Below are positions 9,430 to 17,888 of a stretch of DNA of 50,260 bases, in pieces. The stretch's first letter is position 1. Every line of letters starts with the position of its first letter. A model generated the notes under the pieces. It was not told the origin of the DNA and made no database searches. It saw only the letters and a program-made list of their open reading frames with translations. The stretch lies in the NCBI RefSeq assembly GCF_003316695.1, contig NZ_PDKB01000018.1, positions 1-50,260 of the forward strand, written 5' to 3'. This DNA comes from Aliarcobacter vitoriensis. Lineage in GTDB: Bacteria; Campylobacterota; Campylobacteria; Campylobacterales; Arcobacteraceae. A program made the translations under genes and the position numbers.

Positions 9430-10323
9430 ATGACACAACAAATGAATTTTAAGCAATCAGCAAATTTTAAAAAACCAGAATGGTTAAGAAAAAAATTAAC
9501 TCCACATACACAAGTAGAAATGGAAAATTTACTTAAAGATGTTGGTGGACTTCATACTATTTGTCAAGAGGCAAAATGTCCAAATATAAGTGAATGTTTT
9601 GCAAATAAAAATGCAACTTTTTTAATTTTAGGAAATATCTGTACAAGAAGATGTACTTACTGTAATGTTACAACAGGACGACCAACTGAAGTTGATTTAA
9701 GTGAAATACAAAAAGTTACAACTTCAGTTTTAAGACTTGGGCTTAAATTTGTAGTTATTACAAGTCCAGCAAGAGATGATTTACCTGATGGTGGAGCAGA
9801 ACAATTTTATAGAGTAACACAAGATATTTTGGAAAAATCACCACAAACAAAAGTTGAGATTTTAATTCCTGATTTTAAAGGTAAAGAAGAGAGTCTTAAA
9901 AGAGCTATAGAATCAGGTGCTACAATCATAGGACATAATGTAGAAACAGTTCCAAGTCTATATAAAATAAGAAGAAATGGAACTTATGAAAGAAGTTTGG
10001 AAGTATTAAAAAAATTGAAAGAACTAGGTGGCGATAAAGTTAAGACAAAAAGTGCTTTGATGGTAGGACTTGGAGAAACAGAAGAAGAAATGGTTCAAGT
10101 ATTTAAAGATTTATTAAATGTTGGTTGTAAATTTTTAAGTATAGGACAATATCTTGCTCCTAGTGGAGATTTTGAAAAAGTTATAGAGTATGTAAAACCT
10201 GAACAGTTTTTAAGATATGAAAAGTTAGCTTATGATTTAGGTTTTGAGTTTGTAAAAGCAAGTCCTTATGCTAGAAGTTCTTATATGGCTCATCACTACT
10301 TGAATATGGCTTCGGCTTTGTAA
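9430..10323 (+). CDS. lipA: Lipoyl synthase
   Basis: Radical-SAM enzyme that inserts two sulfurs into protein-bound octanoyl groups. Both iron-sulfur sites are visible: the auxiliary cluster CQEAKCPNISEC (C45, C50, C56) and the radical-SAM CTRRCTYC (C71, C75, C78). The C-terminal ARSSY contains the serine that ligates the sacrificial cluster. 297 residues is the usual size. Follows the transferase gene by 6 bp, and together they complete lipoylation of the PDH E2 encoded on the opposite strand. Confidence 0.97.
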   Translation: MTQQMNFKQSANFKKPEWLRKKLTPHTQVEMENLLKDVGGLHTICQEAKCPNISECFANKNATFLILGNICTRRCTYCNVTTGRPTEVDLSEIQKVTTSVLRLGLKFVVITSPARDDLPDGGAEQFYRVTQDILEKSPQTKVEILIPDFKGKEESLKRAIESGATIIGHNVETVPSLYKIRRNGTYERSLEVLKKLKELGGDKVKTKSALMVGLGETEEEMVQVFKDLLNVGCKFLSIGQYLAPSGDFEKVIEYVKPEQFLRYEKLAYDLGFEFVKASPYARSSYMAHHYLNMASAL

Positions 10324-10350
10324 TTAATAATAATTTACAAAATATTATAA

Positions 10351-10429
10351 TATAATCCCAACTCATTAAGTAATTTAAAAATTAATGATAAAGAAGATTT
10401 TTGTCTTCTTTATCTTAAAGCTTTTTTTT
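10351..10429 (+). ncRNA. Candidate small RNA or terminator downstream of lipA
   Basis: TATAAT at 10351-10356 could start a transcript near 10362. Downstream are a weak dyad CATTAA/TTAATG (10364-10387) and a perfect 11-bp hairpin, GATAAAGAAGA (10387-10397) with TCTTCTTTATC (10404-10414), and then eight Ts at 10422-10429. This would give an RNA of about 68 nt with two stem-loops and a U-tail. A plain lipA terminator is the simpler alternative; the hairpin itself is certain, the independent RNA is not. Confidence 0.3.
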
Positions 10430-10475
10430 AGCTAAAATTTTTAAATTTAGATATTAAAAACCGTAAGGGGTCTTT

Positions 10476-12122
10476 TTGGGTGAGATAATAGATAATAAGA
10501 CTCTTTTAAATGAAATTGAAGAGATTTTAGATAAGTTTACTCTTTTAAATCAGTATAAAAAAGCCTTAGATGAGAGTTCCATAGTTTCAAAAACTAATAA
10601 AAATGGTGTGATAACCTATGTTAATGATAATTTTTGTACTGTTTCTGGATATTCAAAAGAAGAGTTAATAGGTAAGAATCATAATATTATAAGACATCAA
10701 GATATGCCAATAGAAGTCTTTAAAGAGTTATGGACAACTATTTTAGATAAAAAAGTATTTAAAGCAATTATTAAAAATAGAAAAAAAGATGGACAATCTT
10801 ATTATGTAGATACAACGGTATTTCCAATATTTGATGATAAAGATAATATTATAGAGTTTATGGCAATAAGATATGATATTACAAAAATATACGAACAAGA
10901 AAAGATAATTCAAGAACAATATTTAGATGAACTTACTAATCTACCAAATAGACAAAAACTTTTAAAAGATATCAAAAAATCTGAATTTTCAAAAGTAGCG
11001 GTTATAAACATAAATAGGTTCAGAGATATAAATAATTTTTACGGTTTTGAAACTGGAGATAAAGTTCTTCAAAAATTTGCAGATATTCTTAAAAAACTGA
11101 CTCCTTCAAATTTGATTTTATATAAATTATCAAATGATATTTTTGCAATATTATCTAATGATAAAAATAGTTTAGATGATTTAAAGTATCTTTGTAAAAA
11201 TATTATAGAAAATATTGCACAAAAACCAATTTTAGTTGCTAATAATAGTTTTTATATAAATGTTGCGATAGGAGTTGCTTGTAACTGTTTAGATAATAGT
11301 TCTAATTTACTATCAAAAGCTGAATTTGCAGTTCGGATTGCTAGAAAAAAAGATATATCAATACTATTTTTAGATGAAAACATAGAGTTATATAATAAAT
11401 TGCAAGAGAATAGAACACTTGTAGAACAGCTAAAAAGTGTTTTAGAAAATAACAATTTATTATTGTATGGTCAAAAAATGATAAATAACTTTACAGGTGA
11501 AGAAAAATATGAAACTTTAATGAGATTGAAATTAAATGATAATACAATTTTATCTCCCTTTAAATTTTTGGAAGAAGCAAAAAAATCAAAATTGTATCTC
11601 AATATGACGCGAATGTTGGTTAAAAAAGCATGTGAATATTTTAAAGATAAAAATATACATTTTAGTATAAATTTAACATTAGAAGATTTAAAAGATACAT
11701 ATACTATGGATTTTATATACAACACACTTCTTAGAACAAAAACAGCTGAATTTATAGCTTTTGAGATAGTTGAAAGTGAAGGAATTGAAAACTTTGAAGA
11801 AGTAGGTAACTTTATTCGAAAAGTAAAACATTTAGGTTGTAAAGTTGCTATTGATGATTTTGGAACTGGATACTCAAATTTTGAATATATTATAAAGCTT
11901 GATGTTGATTATGTAAAAATAGATGGTTCTTTAATAAAAAACATTCATAAAGATGAACATCTTTATCTTACAGTTAAAACAATCGTAGATTTTGCAAAGG
12001 CTTTGAATATAAAAACTGTTGCTGAATTTGTACATAATAAAGAGGTTTTTGATATTGTCCAAGAACTTAAAATCGACTATTCTCAAGGATATTATCTTCA
12101 CGAACCAGAAGAGTTAAAATAG
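10476..12122 (+). CDS. PAS-GGDEF-EAL cyclic-di-GMP phosphodiesterase
   Basis: Predicted soluble sensor that hydrolyses c-di-GMP. Residues about 30-137 form an Aer-type PAS domain (GYSKEELIGKNHNIIRHQDM). A GGDEF domain follows (about 150-310) whose signature is degenerate: SNDIF (219-223) replaces GGDEF, so cyclase activity is unlikely. The EAL domain keeps its metal and catalytic residues: ETL variant (E346), N399, E430, DDFGTG (D460, D461), K481, E517, Q537. Start is TTG with AAGGGG 5 bases upstream; the SD can sit in the loop of a small imperfect hairpin (10457-10479). Monocistronic, after a terminator-like hairpin. Its last codons fall inside a 19-bp direct repeat. Confidence 0.9.
   Translation: MGEIIDNKTLLNEIEEILDKFTLLNQYKKALDESSIVSKTNKNGVITYVNDNFCTVSGYSKEELIGKNHNIIRHQDMPIEVFKELWTTILDKKVFKAIIKNRKKDGQSYYVDTTVFPIFDDKDNIIEFMAIRYDITKIYEQEKIIQEQYLDELTNLPNRQKLLKDIKKSEFSKVAVININRFRDINNFYGFETGDKVLQKFADILKKLTPSNLILYKLSNDIFAILSNDKNSLDDLKYLCKNIIENIAQKPILVANNSFYINVAIGVACNCLDNSSNLLSKAEFAVRIARKKDISILFLDENIELYNKLQENRTLVEQLKSVLENNNLLLYGQKMINNFTGEEKYETLMRLKLNDNTILSPFKFLEEAKKSKLYLNMTRMLVKKACEYFKDKNIHFSINLTLEDLKDTYTMDFIYNTLLRTKTAEFIAFEIVESEGIENFEEVGNFIRKVKHLGCKVAIDDFGTGYSNFEYIIKLDVDYVKIDGSLIKNIHKDEHLYLTVKTIVDFAKALNIKTVAEFVHNKEVFDIVQELKIDYSQGYYLHEPEELK
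12103..12121 (+). repeat. 19-bp direct repeat, left copy
   Basis: AACCAGAAGAGTTAAAATA overlaps the final codons and stop of the PAS-GGDEF-EAL gene and recurs exactly at 12891-12909 before the end of uvrA. Both copies supply the left arm of a hairpin (here AGAAGAGT with ACTCTTCT at 12126-12133). The two copies bracket the XRE/PAS gene pair, which suggests insertion or segmental duplication. Confidence 0.85.
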
Positions 12123-12123
12123 T

Positions 12124-12381
12124 TTACTCTTCTTTAAAAAATTCTTCCATTGGTGTATCAAATAATTTTGATAATTTTAGTAAATGAACTAAATTGAAAT
12201 GTTTTCCATGTGCATTATTTTCAGTATTTGCATAAAAACCTGAAGATTTTTGTCCAATAGACAAAGCAACTTCTAGCTGACTTAAATTTTTCTCTTTTCT
12301 CAATCTTTTAACATTTTTAGAAATTAGTTTAAAATATTCTTCAATCTCTTCTTCTGTAACTATCTCTGGTAAATTTAACAT
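12124..12381 (-). CDS. XRE-family helix-turn-helix regulator
   Basis: DNA-binding protein of 85 residues. A Cro/C1-type HTH covers about residues 20-75 (NVKRLRKEKNLSQLEVALSI, then a recognition helix around GFYANTENN and the closing helices NLVHLLKLSKLFD). No effector domain. Divergent from the PAS protein gene; its own 5' leader carries the palindrome ATAGAAATTATTTCTAT and a leader nearly identical to that of its neighbour, so it probably represses both genes (inference). RBS AGGAATAAT precedes the ATG. The gene tail overlaps the terminator region of the preceding EAL gene. Confidence 0.85.
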   Translation of the reverse strand: MLNLPEIVTEEEIEEYFKLISKNVKRLRKEKNLSQLEVALSIGQKSSGFYANTENNAHGKHFNLVHLLKLSKLFDTPMEEFFKEE

Positions 12382-12470: not shown

Positions 12471-12836
12471 ATGAATGAAAAAAAAGAGACAATTTTAGAT
12501 GACTATGCTTTTTTAGTTAGTCAAACAGATGAAAAGGGAGTAATACAGTTTGCAAATGACGATTTTTGTGAAATAGCTGAATATAGTATAGATGAATTGA
12601 TTGGAAAACCACATAATATTGTAAGACATCCTGATATGCCAAAAAGTGCATTTGAAGATTTATGGAATACTATAAAAAATGATGAAATTTGGACTGGTTA
12701 TGTAAAAAATTCTACAAAATCTGGTGGATATTATTGGGTATTTGCCACAATTTATCCAACTATATTGAATAATGGAAAAAAAGGTTATCTATCTTGTAGA
12801 AAAAAAGCATCAGAAAAGAGATTGTTAAAGCTATAA
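12471..12836 (+). CDS. Stand-alone PAS-domain protein (Aer/CetB-like)
   Basis: A single PAS domain fills the 121 residues: entry strand YAFLVSQTDEKGVIQFAND, then FCEIAEYSIDELIGKPHNIV in part and RHPDMPKSAFEDLW, the signature of Aer-type redox/energy-taxis PAS domains. It ends right after the last PAS strand (GYLSCRKKAS), with no HAMP, signalling or output domain, so it is shorter than the related CetB-type proteins (about 165 residues) and may be truncated. It resembles the PAS domain of the upstream EAL protein. Partner unknown; divergent from an XRE regulator with a shared leader sequence. Confidence 0.8.
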   Translation: MNEKKETILDDYAFLVSQTDEKGVIQFANDDFCEIAEYSIDELIGKPHNIVRHPDMPKSAFEDLWNTIKNDEIWTGYVKNSTKSGGYYWVFATIYPTILNNGKKGYLSCRKKASEKRLLKL

Positions 12837-15733: not shown

Positions 15734-15798
15734 ATATTGCCTTTAAAATTTTAAAGCCATTATTATAGGATAGTTTTGTTTAATAGTTTTGAAGTTGC

Positions 15799-15818
15799 AA
15801 ATTATAAAATTATAATTT
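15799..15818. promoter_or_regulatory. 20-bp AT palindrome between uvrA and the ATPase-methyltransferase gene
   Basis: AAATTATAA and TTATAATTT flank a central AA, a perfect palindrome of 20 bp lying 65 bp upstream of uvrA and 26 bp beyond the end of the ATPase gene. It may be a terminator stem without GC pairs or a regulator site; its composition alone makes chance occurrence possible. Confidence 0.25.
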
Positions 15819-15844
15819 CATATATTTTTATAAAATAATTACTT

Positions 15845-17848
15845 TTAATTCTCTCCCAATTCTGTAAGACATAATTCAGCATTTGCTAATTGTTGAATCC
15901 AAAATCCATGTGCTAAACCATTTGAATAACTTGGAGTTTCTGTTCTGATTCTTTGAATTTCAGTTCTAGCAGATTGTTTTAATTCTTTCAAAGCCTCTTT
16001 TATTGTATCTATTGAAATATTTGTTAAATATGATTGAGGAATTAAATGTGCCATTAATCTTCCTCTTTGTTCAATTGAATCAAATCGTGCATCATGTTTT
16101 ATAAAATTAGTGTCATCTGCCCGAATTTTCAATAATTTCATCAAGTGTAATGTGTTAAAAACAATAAAACCATTACTATGAGGTAGTTCACCTATTGGAA
16201 TTAAACAATCTTCAATCAATAATAAATAACCATCACTTTTAAGTAATTGTTTTATATTAGAAAAAATTGAATGCCATTGTGAATGTGGTATTTCATGGAG
16301 AACATTACTTAAAACTACTACATCAAAGTAATTATCATCTACTTTTGTACGAAGAGTTTCTATTGAAGTATGATATCTATTTTCTGCATCATCATAGCAA
16401 AGAGCAATATTTTTTAGGCAATCATCTTTATTTGTATCAAATGGTTCAAAAGCATGATAATTAAGAGTTTCTTTTGATACAGTTGGATAATCAGATAAAT
16501 TAGCAATCATACGACCTTTACCCGCACCAAAATCTAAAAGATTAATTGAATTTTTGTTATTCCAGATAATTTTTAATTGTTCATTTAATTGTTTTGATTG
16601 AGGGTCTCTTGAATCTGTTTCTAGAACCATTGGCGGGCATAAACATTCAAAAGTAAAACGATTTCTTGCTAATTCACTTGGTAAACTTGTAAAATCTCTT
16701 AATTTTTGGATTCTATCTTCATCTCCAAGAAGACTTTTTAATACAAGTTCAGGTTTTTTCCCTGAATGTTTTACAATACCATCTTCTACAAACCAAAGAG
16801 AAGAAGCATCAAAATGTGAAAGTAAAGGAATAGAATGAGTTGCTATCCATATTTGACCATTTGGATTATGTTTTTTTATAGTATCTAATAAATCAATTAC
16901 AGCAGATGGATGTAGATGATTTTCTGGTTCATCCATAAAAATAATATAATTTGATAAATTTCCACCTTGTGCAAAAATTGCAACACAAAGTTGTAGTAAT
17001 ACTCTTTGACCAGCAGAAAGTTGCGCTTGAGCGATAGGTTTACCAAACAAAGTAGAATAACCTTCTTTATTCCATCCGATTTCTGCACCTATAAATGATT
17101 TGATTATACTTTGAAGTCTTTCATACTCTGCAACAGCAAAATCTTTTTCTTCTTGAGAAATTTCTGTCATTGGGTGAGTAGTGTTAAACCAAGTTTCCAT
17201 GACTTTTTGAATTAAAGGTATTGTTGATTGATCTAAATGTAAAACTCCAATATTTGTTGCTTGATTTGCTATTTGCATCCAAGATTGTTTGCTTTTATTA
17301 GCCCAGTCTTCTAATTGAATTCTATTTGGAACAAAATCAACAACAGCAACATTTAGTTGGTCATTTTCAAGAATGATAGGAATAGGAGTTTTTAATAGTT
17401 CATCTAATTTTGCAATTTCTTTTTCCCATTTTTCTTTTTCTTTAGGTTGATTTTCAATTTGTTGTTTAGAACTATTAATACTATTCTCATATTGTTGGAT
17501 ATTTAATTTAAGTTGCTGTCTTTGTCCAACTTGATTTTCAATTTGTTGTTTTAAAGTATTAATACTATTCTCATATTGTTGGATATTTAATTCAAGTTGT
17601 TGTTTTTGTCCAACTTGATTTTCAATGTTTTTTCGATATAAATCAATATTCCTTTTTGCATTATTTCTTTGATTTATTTCATTTTGAATATTTTCTGCTT
17701 GACTTCGTATAATATTAAGTAATCGAGTTTTTCCAGAACCATTTTTACCAGCGAGTAAAACCATATTCCCAATTTTTTTCATTGAAATTGGATTTAATCC
17801 AACTGGATTTGTAATATTTTCTATTAAATTAACTTCAGTTATTTTCAT
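15845..17848 (-). CDS. ABC/SMC-like ATPase fused to SAM-dependent methyltransferase
   Basis: Fusion of 667 residues that I do not recognise as a named system. N-terminal ATPase: Walker A GKNGSGKT (34-41), a coiled-coil insertion (about 45-155) built partly of 28-residue repeats, ABC signature LSAGQR (277-282), Walker B YIIFMDEPE (301-309) and switch H338 in ATHS. This is the layout of OLD/AAA_21-type ATPases. In place of a TOPRIM nuclease, a class I methyltransferase follows (about 400-600): SAM motif LLDFGAGKGR (437-446), acidic E468 after the second strand, and VLSNVLHEIP (512-521). No NPPY-type or PC motif is seen, so DNA-base methylation is not indicated. Flanked by uvrA and tauE, same strand, with separate gaps. 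An ATP-gated modifying or defence enzyme is possible but unproven. Confidence 0.75.
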   Translation of the reverse strand: MKITEVNLIENITNPVGLNPISMKKIGNMVLLAGKNGSGKTRLLNIIRSQAENIQNEINQRNNAKRNIDLYRKNIENQVGQKQQLELNIQQYENSINTLKQQIENQVGQRQQLKLNIQQYENSINSSKQQIENQPKEKEKWEKEIAKLDELLKTPIPIILENDQLNVAVVDFVPNRIQLEDWANKSKQSWMQIANQATNIGVLHLDQSTIPLIQKVMETWFNTTHPMTEISQEEKDFAVAEYERLQSIIKSFIGAEIGWNKEGYSTLFGKPIAQAQLSAGQRVLLQLCVAIFAQGGNLSNYIIFMDEPENHLHPSAVIDLLDTIKKHNPNGQIWIATHSIPLLSHFDASSLWFVEDGIVKHSGKKPELVLKSLLGDEDRIQKLRDFTSLPSELARNRFTFECLCPPMVLETDSRDPQSKQLNEQLKIIWNNKNSINLLDFGAGKGRMIANLSDYPTVSKETLNYHAFEPFDTNKDDCLKNIALCYDDAENRYHTSIETLRTKVDDNYFDVVVLSNVLHEIPHSQWHSIFSNIKQLLKSDGYLLLIEDCLIPIGELPHSNGFIVFNTLHLMKLLKIRADDTNFIKHDARFDSIEQRGRLMAHLIPQSYLTNISIDTIKEALKELKQSARTEIQRIRTETPSYSNGLAHGFWIQQLANAELCLTELGEN
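17459..17626 (-). repeat. 84-bp tandem repeat encoding coiled coil
   Basis: Two consecutive 84-bp units (17543-17626 and 17459-17542) encode residues 75-102 and 103-130 of the ATPase-methyltransferase; both begin IENQVGQ and contain LNIQQYENSIN. A third start, IENQ, follows at residue 131. Each unit is 28 residues, exactly four heptads, so unit gain or loss would lengthen the coiled coil without breaking its register. Confidence 0.85.
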
Positions 17849-17888
17849 AAATTTGCTTTTTATTATTTTTTCTTTGTATCTTATAATA

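What the first reader, a model, noticed from the sequence alone, without database searches (positions are those of the whole stretch)
15845..17848. ABC-type ATPase fused to a SAM methyltransferase, OLD-like plan with the nuclease replaced
One 667-residue chain joins a complete ATPase (Walker A 34-41, signature LSAGQR, Walker B DEPE, H338) with coiled-coil insertion to a complete class I methyltransferase (LLDFGAGKGR, LSNVLHEIP). In OLD-type proteins a TOPRIM nuclease occupies this place. The missing NPPY/PC motifs argue against ordinary DNA methylation, so a protein, RNA or small-molecule target gated by DNA or stress sensing is conceivable. It stands alone among housekeeping genes, as many single-gene defence or stress systems do. 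Motifs are seen; the function is inference.
Basis: partly seen in the sequence, partly recalled or inferred. Interest (0 to 1): 0.72.

Follow-up and report, generated by a model that had tools for sequence, protein, structure and literature searches.

The report
Mobile ATPase–methyltransferase, probable phage-defence gene
A single gene, found in scattered bacteria and on phage-bearing DNA, joins the kind of ATP-driven switch used by known phage-defence systems to a methyltransferase instead of the usual nuclease, so it may stop infections by chemical marking rather than cutting.

Summary
The 667-residue ORF at 15845-17848 (minus strand) is real and intact, and it joins a complete ABC ATPase to a complete class I SAM methyltransferase as described. 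It is not a freak of one strain: ten more proteins have the same fusion (Rheinheimera, Bacteroidota, three viral contigs), all eleven keep both sets of motifs and none has a DNA-methylase motif. In the eight compared, the two halves diverge in step. None of the ten scanned carries TOPRIM. By sequence the ATPase groups with PtuA, AriA and GajA, the ATPases of Septu/retron, PARIS and Gabija defence. In the nearest relative the flanking genes are adjacent, so the gene sits here alone as an insert of about 2.09 kb. Four relatives lie within a few kb of phage genes, one directly behind a type IIG/ISP restriction gene on a plasmid-like contig, one near a phage-type integrase. Best reading: a mobile, self-contained defence protein in which an OLD/PtuA-type ATPase controls a methyltransferase effector. 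Defence, trigger and methylated target are inferred, not shown. The coiled coil is not a family feature; its length here comes partly from an 84-bp duplication.

The parts
15845..17848 (-). Single gene for the ABC ATPase-methyltransferase fusion, 667 aa
   Evidence: ORF and translation; Pfam AAA_21 and Methyltransf_23; ten relatives with the same plan
15792..17884 (.). Segment of about 2.09 kb, holding only this gene, that is absent in the nearest relative (G003)
   Evidence: Flank homology ends at 17885 and resumes at 15791; tauE-like and uvrA-like genes adjacent in L040
17726..17749 (-). Walker A GKNGSGKT, residues 34-41
   Evidence: G34, N36, G37, G39 and K40 invariant in ten aligned members; present in 11 of 11
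17354..17695 (-). Variable helical (coiled-coil) insert, residues 52-165; no invariant residue in the family
   Evidence: Helices in the model; 0 of 114 positions invariant; 130 residues between T41 and F172 here against 73-104 in seven relatives
17447..17626 (-). 84-bp tandem duplication (2.1 copies, 93% matches) that lengthens the coiled coil
   Evidence: Tandem Repeats Finder
17006..17020 (-). ABC signature LSAGQ, residues 277-281
   Evidence: S278 and G280 invariant, L277 and Q281 nearly so
16922..16936 (-). Walker B MDEPE, residues 305-309
   Evidence: D306, E307 and E309 invariant
16835..16837 (-). Switch histidine H338 in ATHS
   Evidence: T337, H338 and S339 invariant
16199..16549 (-). 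Class I SAM-methyltransferase core, residues 434-550
   Evidence: Pfam Methyltransf_23/12/11/25; model of the C-terminal part with pLDDT 80.4, pTM 0.79; structure matches
16511..16534 (-). SAM-binding motif DFGAGKGR, residues 439-446
   Evidence: G441, G443, G445 and R446 invariant in ten; motif in 11 of 11
16289..16306 (-). Motif IV position NVLHEI, residues 515-520, in place of a DNA-methylase NPPY
   Evidence: V516 and E519 invariant; N515, H518 and I520 nearly so; 11 of 11
16187..16213 (-). Family signature ED...PxGE, residues 546-554
   Evidence: E546, D547, G553 and E554 invariant, P551 nearly so; 11 of 11
15848..16198 (-). C-terminal tail, residues 551-667, with GRLxAH and HGFWIQQxAN
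   Evidence: 15 of 117 positions invariant in eight members, 7 of 117 in ten; HGFWIQQ itself is altered in the divergent branch

Best explanation
A mobile, single-gene anti-phage protein, or a prophage-borne one that keeps other phages out. Shown: a complete ABC ATPase of the PtuA/AriA/GajA (OLD) group is fused to a complete, non-DNA-type class I SAM methyltransferase; the fusion is diverged, rare and scattered, sits in the window as a lone insert, and turns up near phage genes and once behind a restriction gene. Inferred: the ATPase assembles into oligomers and holds the methyltransferase inactive; a phage product or process is sensed by the fast-changing insert lobes; the ATP state changes; and the methyltransferase then methylates a cell or phage target (most likely RNA such as tRNA, or a small molecule or protein rather than DNA), halting growth or phage production. 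The methyltransferase thus sits where TOPRIM or HNH sits in the relatives.
For: The predicted fold of 1-382 is closest to retron PtuA: Z 14.5, rmsd 4.1, 266 residues aligned. Methyltransferase: 10 of 10 members scanned match Methyltransf_23; SAM motif in 11 of 11; E519, W525, E546, D547, E554 and R597 invariant in ten. Coupling: distances of the two halves correlate across eight members, r 0.81, 0 of 10,000 permutations as high. Mobility: empty site; no counterpart at E <= 1e-12 in 297 other genomes of the order. Context: phage baseplate, tail and filamentous-type genes and integrases; type IIG/ISP restriction gene 120 bp upstream on a Rep3/ParA contig. Literature: OLD ATPases are paired with alternative effectors (PMC12839542, passages); Septu and PARIS act by cleaving tRNA (PMC13096335; PMC12409363; passages).
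Against: No activity is shown. The window copy and all three Bacteroidota members of the genome scan (L016-L018) lie among genes that read as ordinary, with no defence neighbour recognised by eye. All four phage-flanked members occur in the viral collection (one, Rheinheimera, also in the genome collection), so the phage share is biased upward; the restriction and integrase neighbours are single cases, the first on a MAG contig that could be mis-binned. No full-length match in INPHARED phages or PLSDB plasmids. PADLOC rows shown (25 of 88) match only the ATPase stretch. With a five-member ATPase profile one transporter ATPase (4yms) ranks above AriA. The full-length model is weak (pLDDT 70.1, pTM 0.45), so how the halves dock is unknown. 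The methyltransferase fold matches many enzymes about equally well, most of them small-molecule enzymes.
Confidence: 0.55

Rival explanations
1. The methyltransferase modifies DNA, as a self-marking arm of a restriction-like system, and the ATPase is the DNA-recognising or restricting arm.
For: One relative sits directly behind a type IIG/ISP restriction-methylase gene; PADLOC gives weak mad2 (6.3e-6, 2 of 5 members), MTase_I and MTase_II (1 of 5 each) matches to the methyltransferase half.
Against: No [DNS]PP[FYW] or PC anywhere in 11 of 11 members; the predicted fold matches small-molecule and RNA methyltransferases; no nuclease family among the Pfam matches of ten members and none recognised by reading beside the window gene.
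Confidence: 0.12
2. A lysogenic-conversion or metabolic gene: the enzyme makes or modifies a small molecule, lipid or surface component, with ATP used for regulation, and has no immune role.
For: Methyltransferase matches are mostly natural-product and small-molecule enzymes such as CurJ, OxaG and GtmA and plant N-methyltransferases; several copies lie among ordinary-looking genes; two acyltransferase-like genes (by reading) lie near the L021 copy.
Against: No shared biosynthetic neighbour recognised by eye in the ORF lists; the ATPase's nearest solved relatives are defence ATPases; patchy single-gene distribution.
Confidence: 0.15
3. A self-contained growth-inhibition or stability module (toxin-antitoxin-like) of mobile elements, in which the ATPase half restrains a methyltransferase toxin, selected for element maintenance rather than for defence.
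For: Occurs near phage genes, on a Rep3/ParA contig and near an integrase; single gene, with no separate antitoxin recognised beside the window copy.
Against: Would not explain the fast divergence of the insert and middle lobe (mean identity 0.17 and 0.31 in eight members) as readily as sensing of changing triggers; the boundary with defence is blurred.
Confidence: 0.12
4. A counter-defence or DNA-repair factor of the SMC/RecF type, used by phages against host defence or for recombination.
For: SMC_N Pfam match in 10 of 10 members at E <= 0.001; present on phage contigs; a distant methyltransferase of similar type lies inside very large phage proteins.
Against: Two phage-flanked copies follow tail or baseplate genes, not replication genes; the window and Bacteroidota copies are not near recognised phage genes, apart from the integrase near L071; SMC_N matches the window protein below its curated cut-off (35.3 against 40 bits).
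Confidence: 0.06

Closest known systems
Septu / retron PtuA (with PtuB HNH nuclease)
   Same: Nearest solved ATPase by sequence profile (6e-14) and by predicted fold of the ATPase half (Z 14.5); complete Walker A, signature, Walker B and switch histidine.
   Different: PtuA works with a separate HNH protein; here a methyltransferase is fused to the ATPase and no HNH gene was recognised beside it. NCBIfam PtuA model far below cut-off.
PARIS AriA-AriB
   Same: OLD-group ABC ATPase acting as sensor, sometimes fused to its effector (PMC12409363, passages); AriA is the next named solved relative in the ten-member search (1.1e-9).
   Different: The PARIS effector is a TOPRIM tRNA nuclease; none is present here.
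OLD class 1 proteins (P2 Old, TsOLD)
   Same: Single gene, N-terminal ABC ATPase with C-terminal catalytic domain, prophage link for P2 Old (PMC10568477, passages).
   Different: No TOPRIM; a class I methyltransferase instead.
Gabija GajA
   Same: OLD-group ATPase; solved GajA chains at 3e-9 to 5e-9 in the family profile search.
   Different: GajA carries TOPRIM and works with GajB helicase (PMC10568477, passages).
MADS (mad2, mad3)
   Same: An ATPase and a methyltransferase in one defence system (mad2 as methyltransferase is recalled); weak matches to both halves.
   Different: Separate genes (recalled); ATPase scores 45.3 bits against a cut-off of 420.
METTL6, bacterial Hen1 and small-molecule C-/N-/O-methyltransferases (CurJ, OxaG, DnrK)
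   Same: Same class I fold over the catalytic core (Z about 12-15).
   Different: No detectable subfamily tie; no row shown in the searches made covers the family's C-terminal tail with a named family.

Membership tests
OLD family (class 1) | N-terminal ABC ATPase with complete motifs | tested here: met
   Pfam AAA_21 and AAA_15 in 10 of 10; invariant motifs
OLD family (class 1) | C-terminal TOPRIM nuclease | tested here: not met
   No TOPRIM family among the Pfam matches (E <= 0.001) of 10 of 10 members; Methyltransf_23 in 10 of 10
OLD family (class 1) | Encoded as a single gene | tested here: met
   Empty-site comparison with one relative: about 2.09 kb segment holding only this gene
Septu | PtuA-type ATPase | tested here: inconclusive
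   Nearest solved relative by profile and fold, but NCBIfam retron PtuA scores 30.4 bits against a cut-off of 500
Septu | Adjacent PtuB HNH nuclease | tested here: not met
   Neighbours in the window read as uvrA-like and tauE-like (labels by reading); they are adjacent to each other without this gene in G003; no HNH model was run on them
PARIS | AriA ATPase with AriB TOPRIM tRNase | tested here: not met
   No TOPRIM in chain; the top PADLOC AriA match is to a 304-position model aligned over the same stretch as Pfam AAA_21, so taken as unspecific
MADS | MAD3 ATPase above the curated cut-off | tested here: not met
   45.3 bits against cut-off 420
Restriction-modification DNA methyltransferase | [DNS]PP[FYW] or PC catalytic motif | tested here: not met
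   Neither occurs in 11 of 11 members; NVLHEI-type sequence at motif IV in all 11
Class I SAM-dependent methyltransferase superfamily | SAM-binding glycine motif and Rossmann-type fold | tested here: met
   GxGxG motif in 11 of 11; Pfam above cut-off; model and structure matches
Anti-phage defence systems | Protection against phage | not testable with these tools
   Needs phage challenge

The most novel reading that the evidence does not exclude
A new class of immune effector: a methyltransferase that poisons or shields by methylation on demand. A PtuA/OLD-type ATPase cages it in the same chain, a phage trigger frees it, and it methylates a translation component (for example a tRNA, as the nuclease relatives attack tRNA) so that infection aborts, possibly reversibly.
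Probability: 0.22. Interest if true: 0.87.

Novelty: new variant of a known kind. Interest (0 to 1): 0.62.

Why it matters
ABC ATPases of the OLD/PtuA/AriA group recur across bacterial immunity, and in the passages I read their effectors are nucleases. A conserved, mobile family that carries a methyltransferase in that place would show that the chassis can drive chemical modification as well as cutting. It would also give a single-gene system in which the question 'what does the ATPase switch on?' can be answered with one protein, SAM and a phage panel.

Tried and rejected
Recent fusion or artefact: rejected, since ten relatives share the plan and the halves diverge together. Ordinary DNA methylase: rejected on motifs, with the fold matches in agreement. 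Membership of PARIS, Septu, MADS or OLD: each fails at least one defining feature. Coiled coil as a functional hallmark: rejected. Foreign base composition: GC 0.282 against 0.271-0.306 in five neighbours, so composition does not mark it as foreign.

Searches that led nowhere: plasmids, INPHARED phages and E. coli (the two plasmid hits cover 14% of the query, within the ATPase). Fifteen of the 19 viral loci hold ATPases of 421-542 residues that, by reading, lack this methyltransferase. L062 and L074-L076 hold related methyltransferases inside reading frames of 1584-2163 residues, not this fusion (some run to the end of the stretch held). Promoter and terminator scans gave nothing clear (promoters 15 against a shuffled mean of 16.7; one terminator-like site, inside the gene, against 0.4). 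Structure comparison did not single out a substrate: the best row has Z 13.3 and row 50 has Z 11.5; the viral structure library gave assorted viral methyltransferases. The family surveys, and of 104 and 110, draw on overlapping sets of genomes.

Papers: the listings (two Pfam names together: 0 papers; hyphenated ATPase-methyltransferase phrases: 2 papers, on epigenome editing) showed no description of this fusion, nor did the methyltransferase passages of PMC10853773. PD-lambda-5 was checked as a prophage methyltransferase defence; its authors call it a compacted prophage version of a restriction-plus-abortive system (PMC9519451, passages), and I did not compare sequences. The classification most likely to list such a fusion (Krishnan et al. 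2020, PMC7544218) is not held, so it may already contain it; I have not seen it.

Full report
Observation. The ORF at 15845-17848 is on the minus strand, 667 codons, intact. Pfam finds AAA_21 over 31-343 and Methyltransf_23 over 431-546, both above their curated cut-offs.

The fusion is a family. A search of viral contigs gave a full-length relative on a 9,086-base contig (L013, 36% in the best segment, residues 1-664). The genome scan later gave the same locus on a 9,086-base contig of Rheinheimera mesophila (L015, NZ_LAVS01000040.1). That genome scan, limited to two peptide patterns, gave four loci: Rheinheimera and three Bacteroidota MAGs (L016-L018). Further viral scans gave three more full-length relatives (L023, L021, L022). 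A paralogue in the genome of L017 (G403, GWA2_31_9) and samples around the Bacteroidota genomes led to a more divergent branch with the same plan: L063 (740 aa), L068 (655 aa) and L071 (627 aa). With the window that is eleven proteins. Walker A, Walker B (DEPE, or DELE in L068), SAM motif, NVLHEI-type motif and ED...GE signature are present in 11 of 11, and neither [DNS]PP[FYW] nor PC occurs in any. Ten were aligned (A10); L071 was found later and is not in the alignments. All ten match AAA_21, AAA_15 and Methyltransf_23, and none has TOPRIM among its Pfam matches.

Rarity and scatter. No full-length counterpart was found in the 30 other genomes of the genus tested (three of them gave short ATPase-only matches), in 297 others of the order at E <= 1e-12 (about four candidates per genome scored in the rows shown), in 199 others of the phylum with the two-member methyltransferase profile or, with the ten-member profile, in 247 others of the order. 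In samples around the relatives there was 1 in 390 others, 0 in 368 and 1 in 374. These samples overlap in part.

How it got here. In G003, the relative with the most similar tauE-like protein (93%), the tauE-like and uvrA-like genes are adjacent and the gene is missing. Homology to the window stops at 17885 and resumes at 15791, so the extra piece is about 2.09 kb and holds just this gene, in place of about 35 bases. Of 19 relatives' loci examined (of 29 others with a match), only this one shows uvrA within the roughly 1.5 kb fetched, so the site cannot be compared more widely. Gain here rather than loss in G003 is inferred from the absence in the other genus members. Gene names here are by reading.

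Neighbourhoods. L015: baseplate genes (phrog_2258, phrog_4011) about 1 kb upstream. L019/L023: tail genes (phrog_6079, phrog_9600) just upstream and a tape-measure gene further up; on the other side a gene that reads as SRAP/YedK-like (recalled label). L022/L066: genes read as filamentous-phage genes, starting about 2.2 kb away, with a Zot-like assembly gene and an integrase further on ('filamentous' rests on recall of those families). L021/L064: a tail-fibre gene about 4.3 kb and a tail gene about 7 kb on one side, phage-type families from about 1.3 kb on the other, and two acyltransferase-like genes (by reading) between. L063/L077: a type IIG/ISP restriction-methylase gene (PADLOC E = 0; Pfam Type_ISP_C) 120 bases upstream on the same strand, a DUF4062 gene matching PADLOC family PDC-S60 over its first 210 residues, an AAA_14-DUF4143 gene matching PDC-S01, and Rep3 and ParA-type genes, that is, an apparently plasmid-like defence cluster; a MAG contig can be mis-binned. 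L071/L079: a phage-type integrase about 1.8 kb away. L016-L018: ordinary-looking genes, by eye only. L068/L078: an unmatched 762-residue gene 75 bases upstream. So 6 of 11 have phage, integrase or restriction neighbours. Counting only the eight that occur in genome collections (the window, L015, L016-L018, L063, L068, L071), it is 3 of 8.

What the halves are. With a profile of the ATPase halves of five members the best solved relatives are retron Ec83 and Ec78 PtuA; one transporter ATPase (4yms) ranks between them and AriA. With the ten-member full-length profile the first 19 of 24 rows are PtuA, AriA or GajA chains (22bu is titled only 'AAA family ATPase') and the first transporter is row 20. 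The full-length model (pLDDT 70.1, pTM 0.45) matches retron PtuA over 1-382 with Z 14.5, rmsd 4.1, 266 residues aligned. The C-terminal part modelled alone is better (pLDDT 80.4, pTM 0.79) and matches a broad set of class I methyltransferases, with CurJ, OxaG, METTL6, bacterial Hen1 and others within two Z units, and plant N-methyltransferases first in Foldseek, so fold does not tell the substrate. A PHROGs match to a 'tRNA methyltransferase' family (phrog_4752, 6.8e-8; 3 of 8 members) is a weak pointer to RNA.

Conservation. In eight members 91 columns are invariant: 45 in the ATPase outside the insert, 31 in 383-550, 15 in the tail and 0 in the insert. Mean pairwise identity is 0.57 around signature to switch, 0.42 in the methyltransferase core, 0.47 in the tail, 0.31 in the lobe 166-275 and 0.17 in the insert. 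Both active sites are kept while the insert and middle lobe vary, as expected if those lobes sense changing partners; that last step is inference. The halves' distance matrices correlate at r 0.81, with 0 of 10,000 permutations as high; this shows common descent of the two halves, not a physical interaction.

Mechanism. From the literature: in PARIS an AriA hexamer holds the AriB effector and releases it when a phage protein is sensed, and AriB cuts tRNA (PMC12409363, passages); Septu needs both the ATPase motifs of PtuA and the HNH motif of PtuB and cuts tRNA-Tyr (PMC13096335, passages); OLD-group ATPases are paired with TOPRIM, HNH, PD-(D/E)XK or PIN nucleases (PMC12839542, passages). By analogy I propose that here the ATPase controls the methyltransferase. 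Target and trigger are unknown; the motif and fold evidence speaks against DNA bases.

Standing. Not a member of OLD, Septu, PARIS or MADS, since each fails a defining feature tested here, but it is built on a plan like theirs. I found no description of this fusion in the searches named under Tried and rejected; the main classification of ABC ATPases in conflict systems (Krishnan et al. 2020) was not available to me, so prior mention cannot be excluded.

Noticed in passing
L077:12374-15565 and 10031-12253: In the GWA2_31_9 MAG a divergent family member follows a type IIG/ISP restriction gene by 120 bases on a contig with Rep3, ParA-type, DUF4062 and AAA_14-DUF4143 genes, apparently a plasmid-borne defence cluster.
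   Followed up: partly
L074, L075, L076 and L062: Distantly related methyltransferases (23-31% in the matched segment) lie inside very large proteins on viral contigs (reading frames of 1584-2163 residues, some running off the stretch held), which resemble polyvalent phage proteins (recalled).
   Followed up: no
L078:5361-7649: A 762-residue protein with no Pfam or PADLOC match lies 75 bases upstream of a family member on the same strand; possibly a two-gene unit.
   Followed up: partly
L022 / L066: A contig with what reads as a filamentous-phage prophage carries a family member about 2.2 kb from the nearest recognised phage gene; if inside the phage, a large cargo gene for such a small phage.
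   Followed up: partly
window 17447-17626: 84-bp in-frame tandem duplication (93% matches) lengthening the coiled coil by 28 residues, four heptads, suggesting recent length change.
   Followed up: yes
window 10476-12122 and 12471-12836: A PAS-GGDEF-EAL-like gene followed by a PAS-only gene with a similar PAS domain (names by reading).
   Followed up: no
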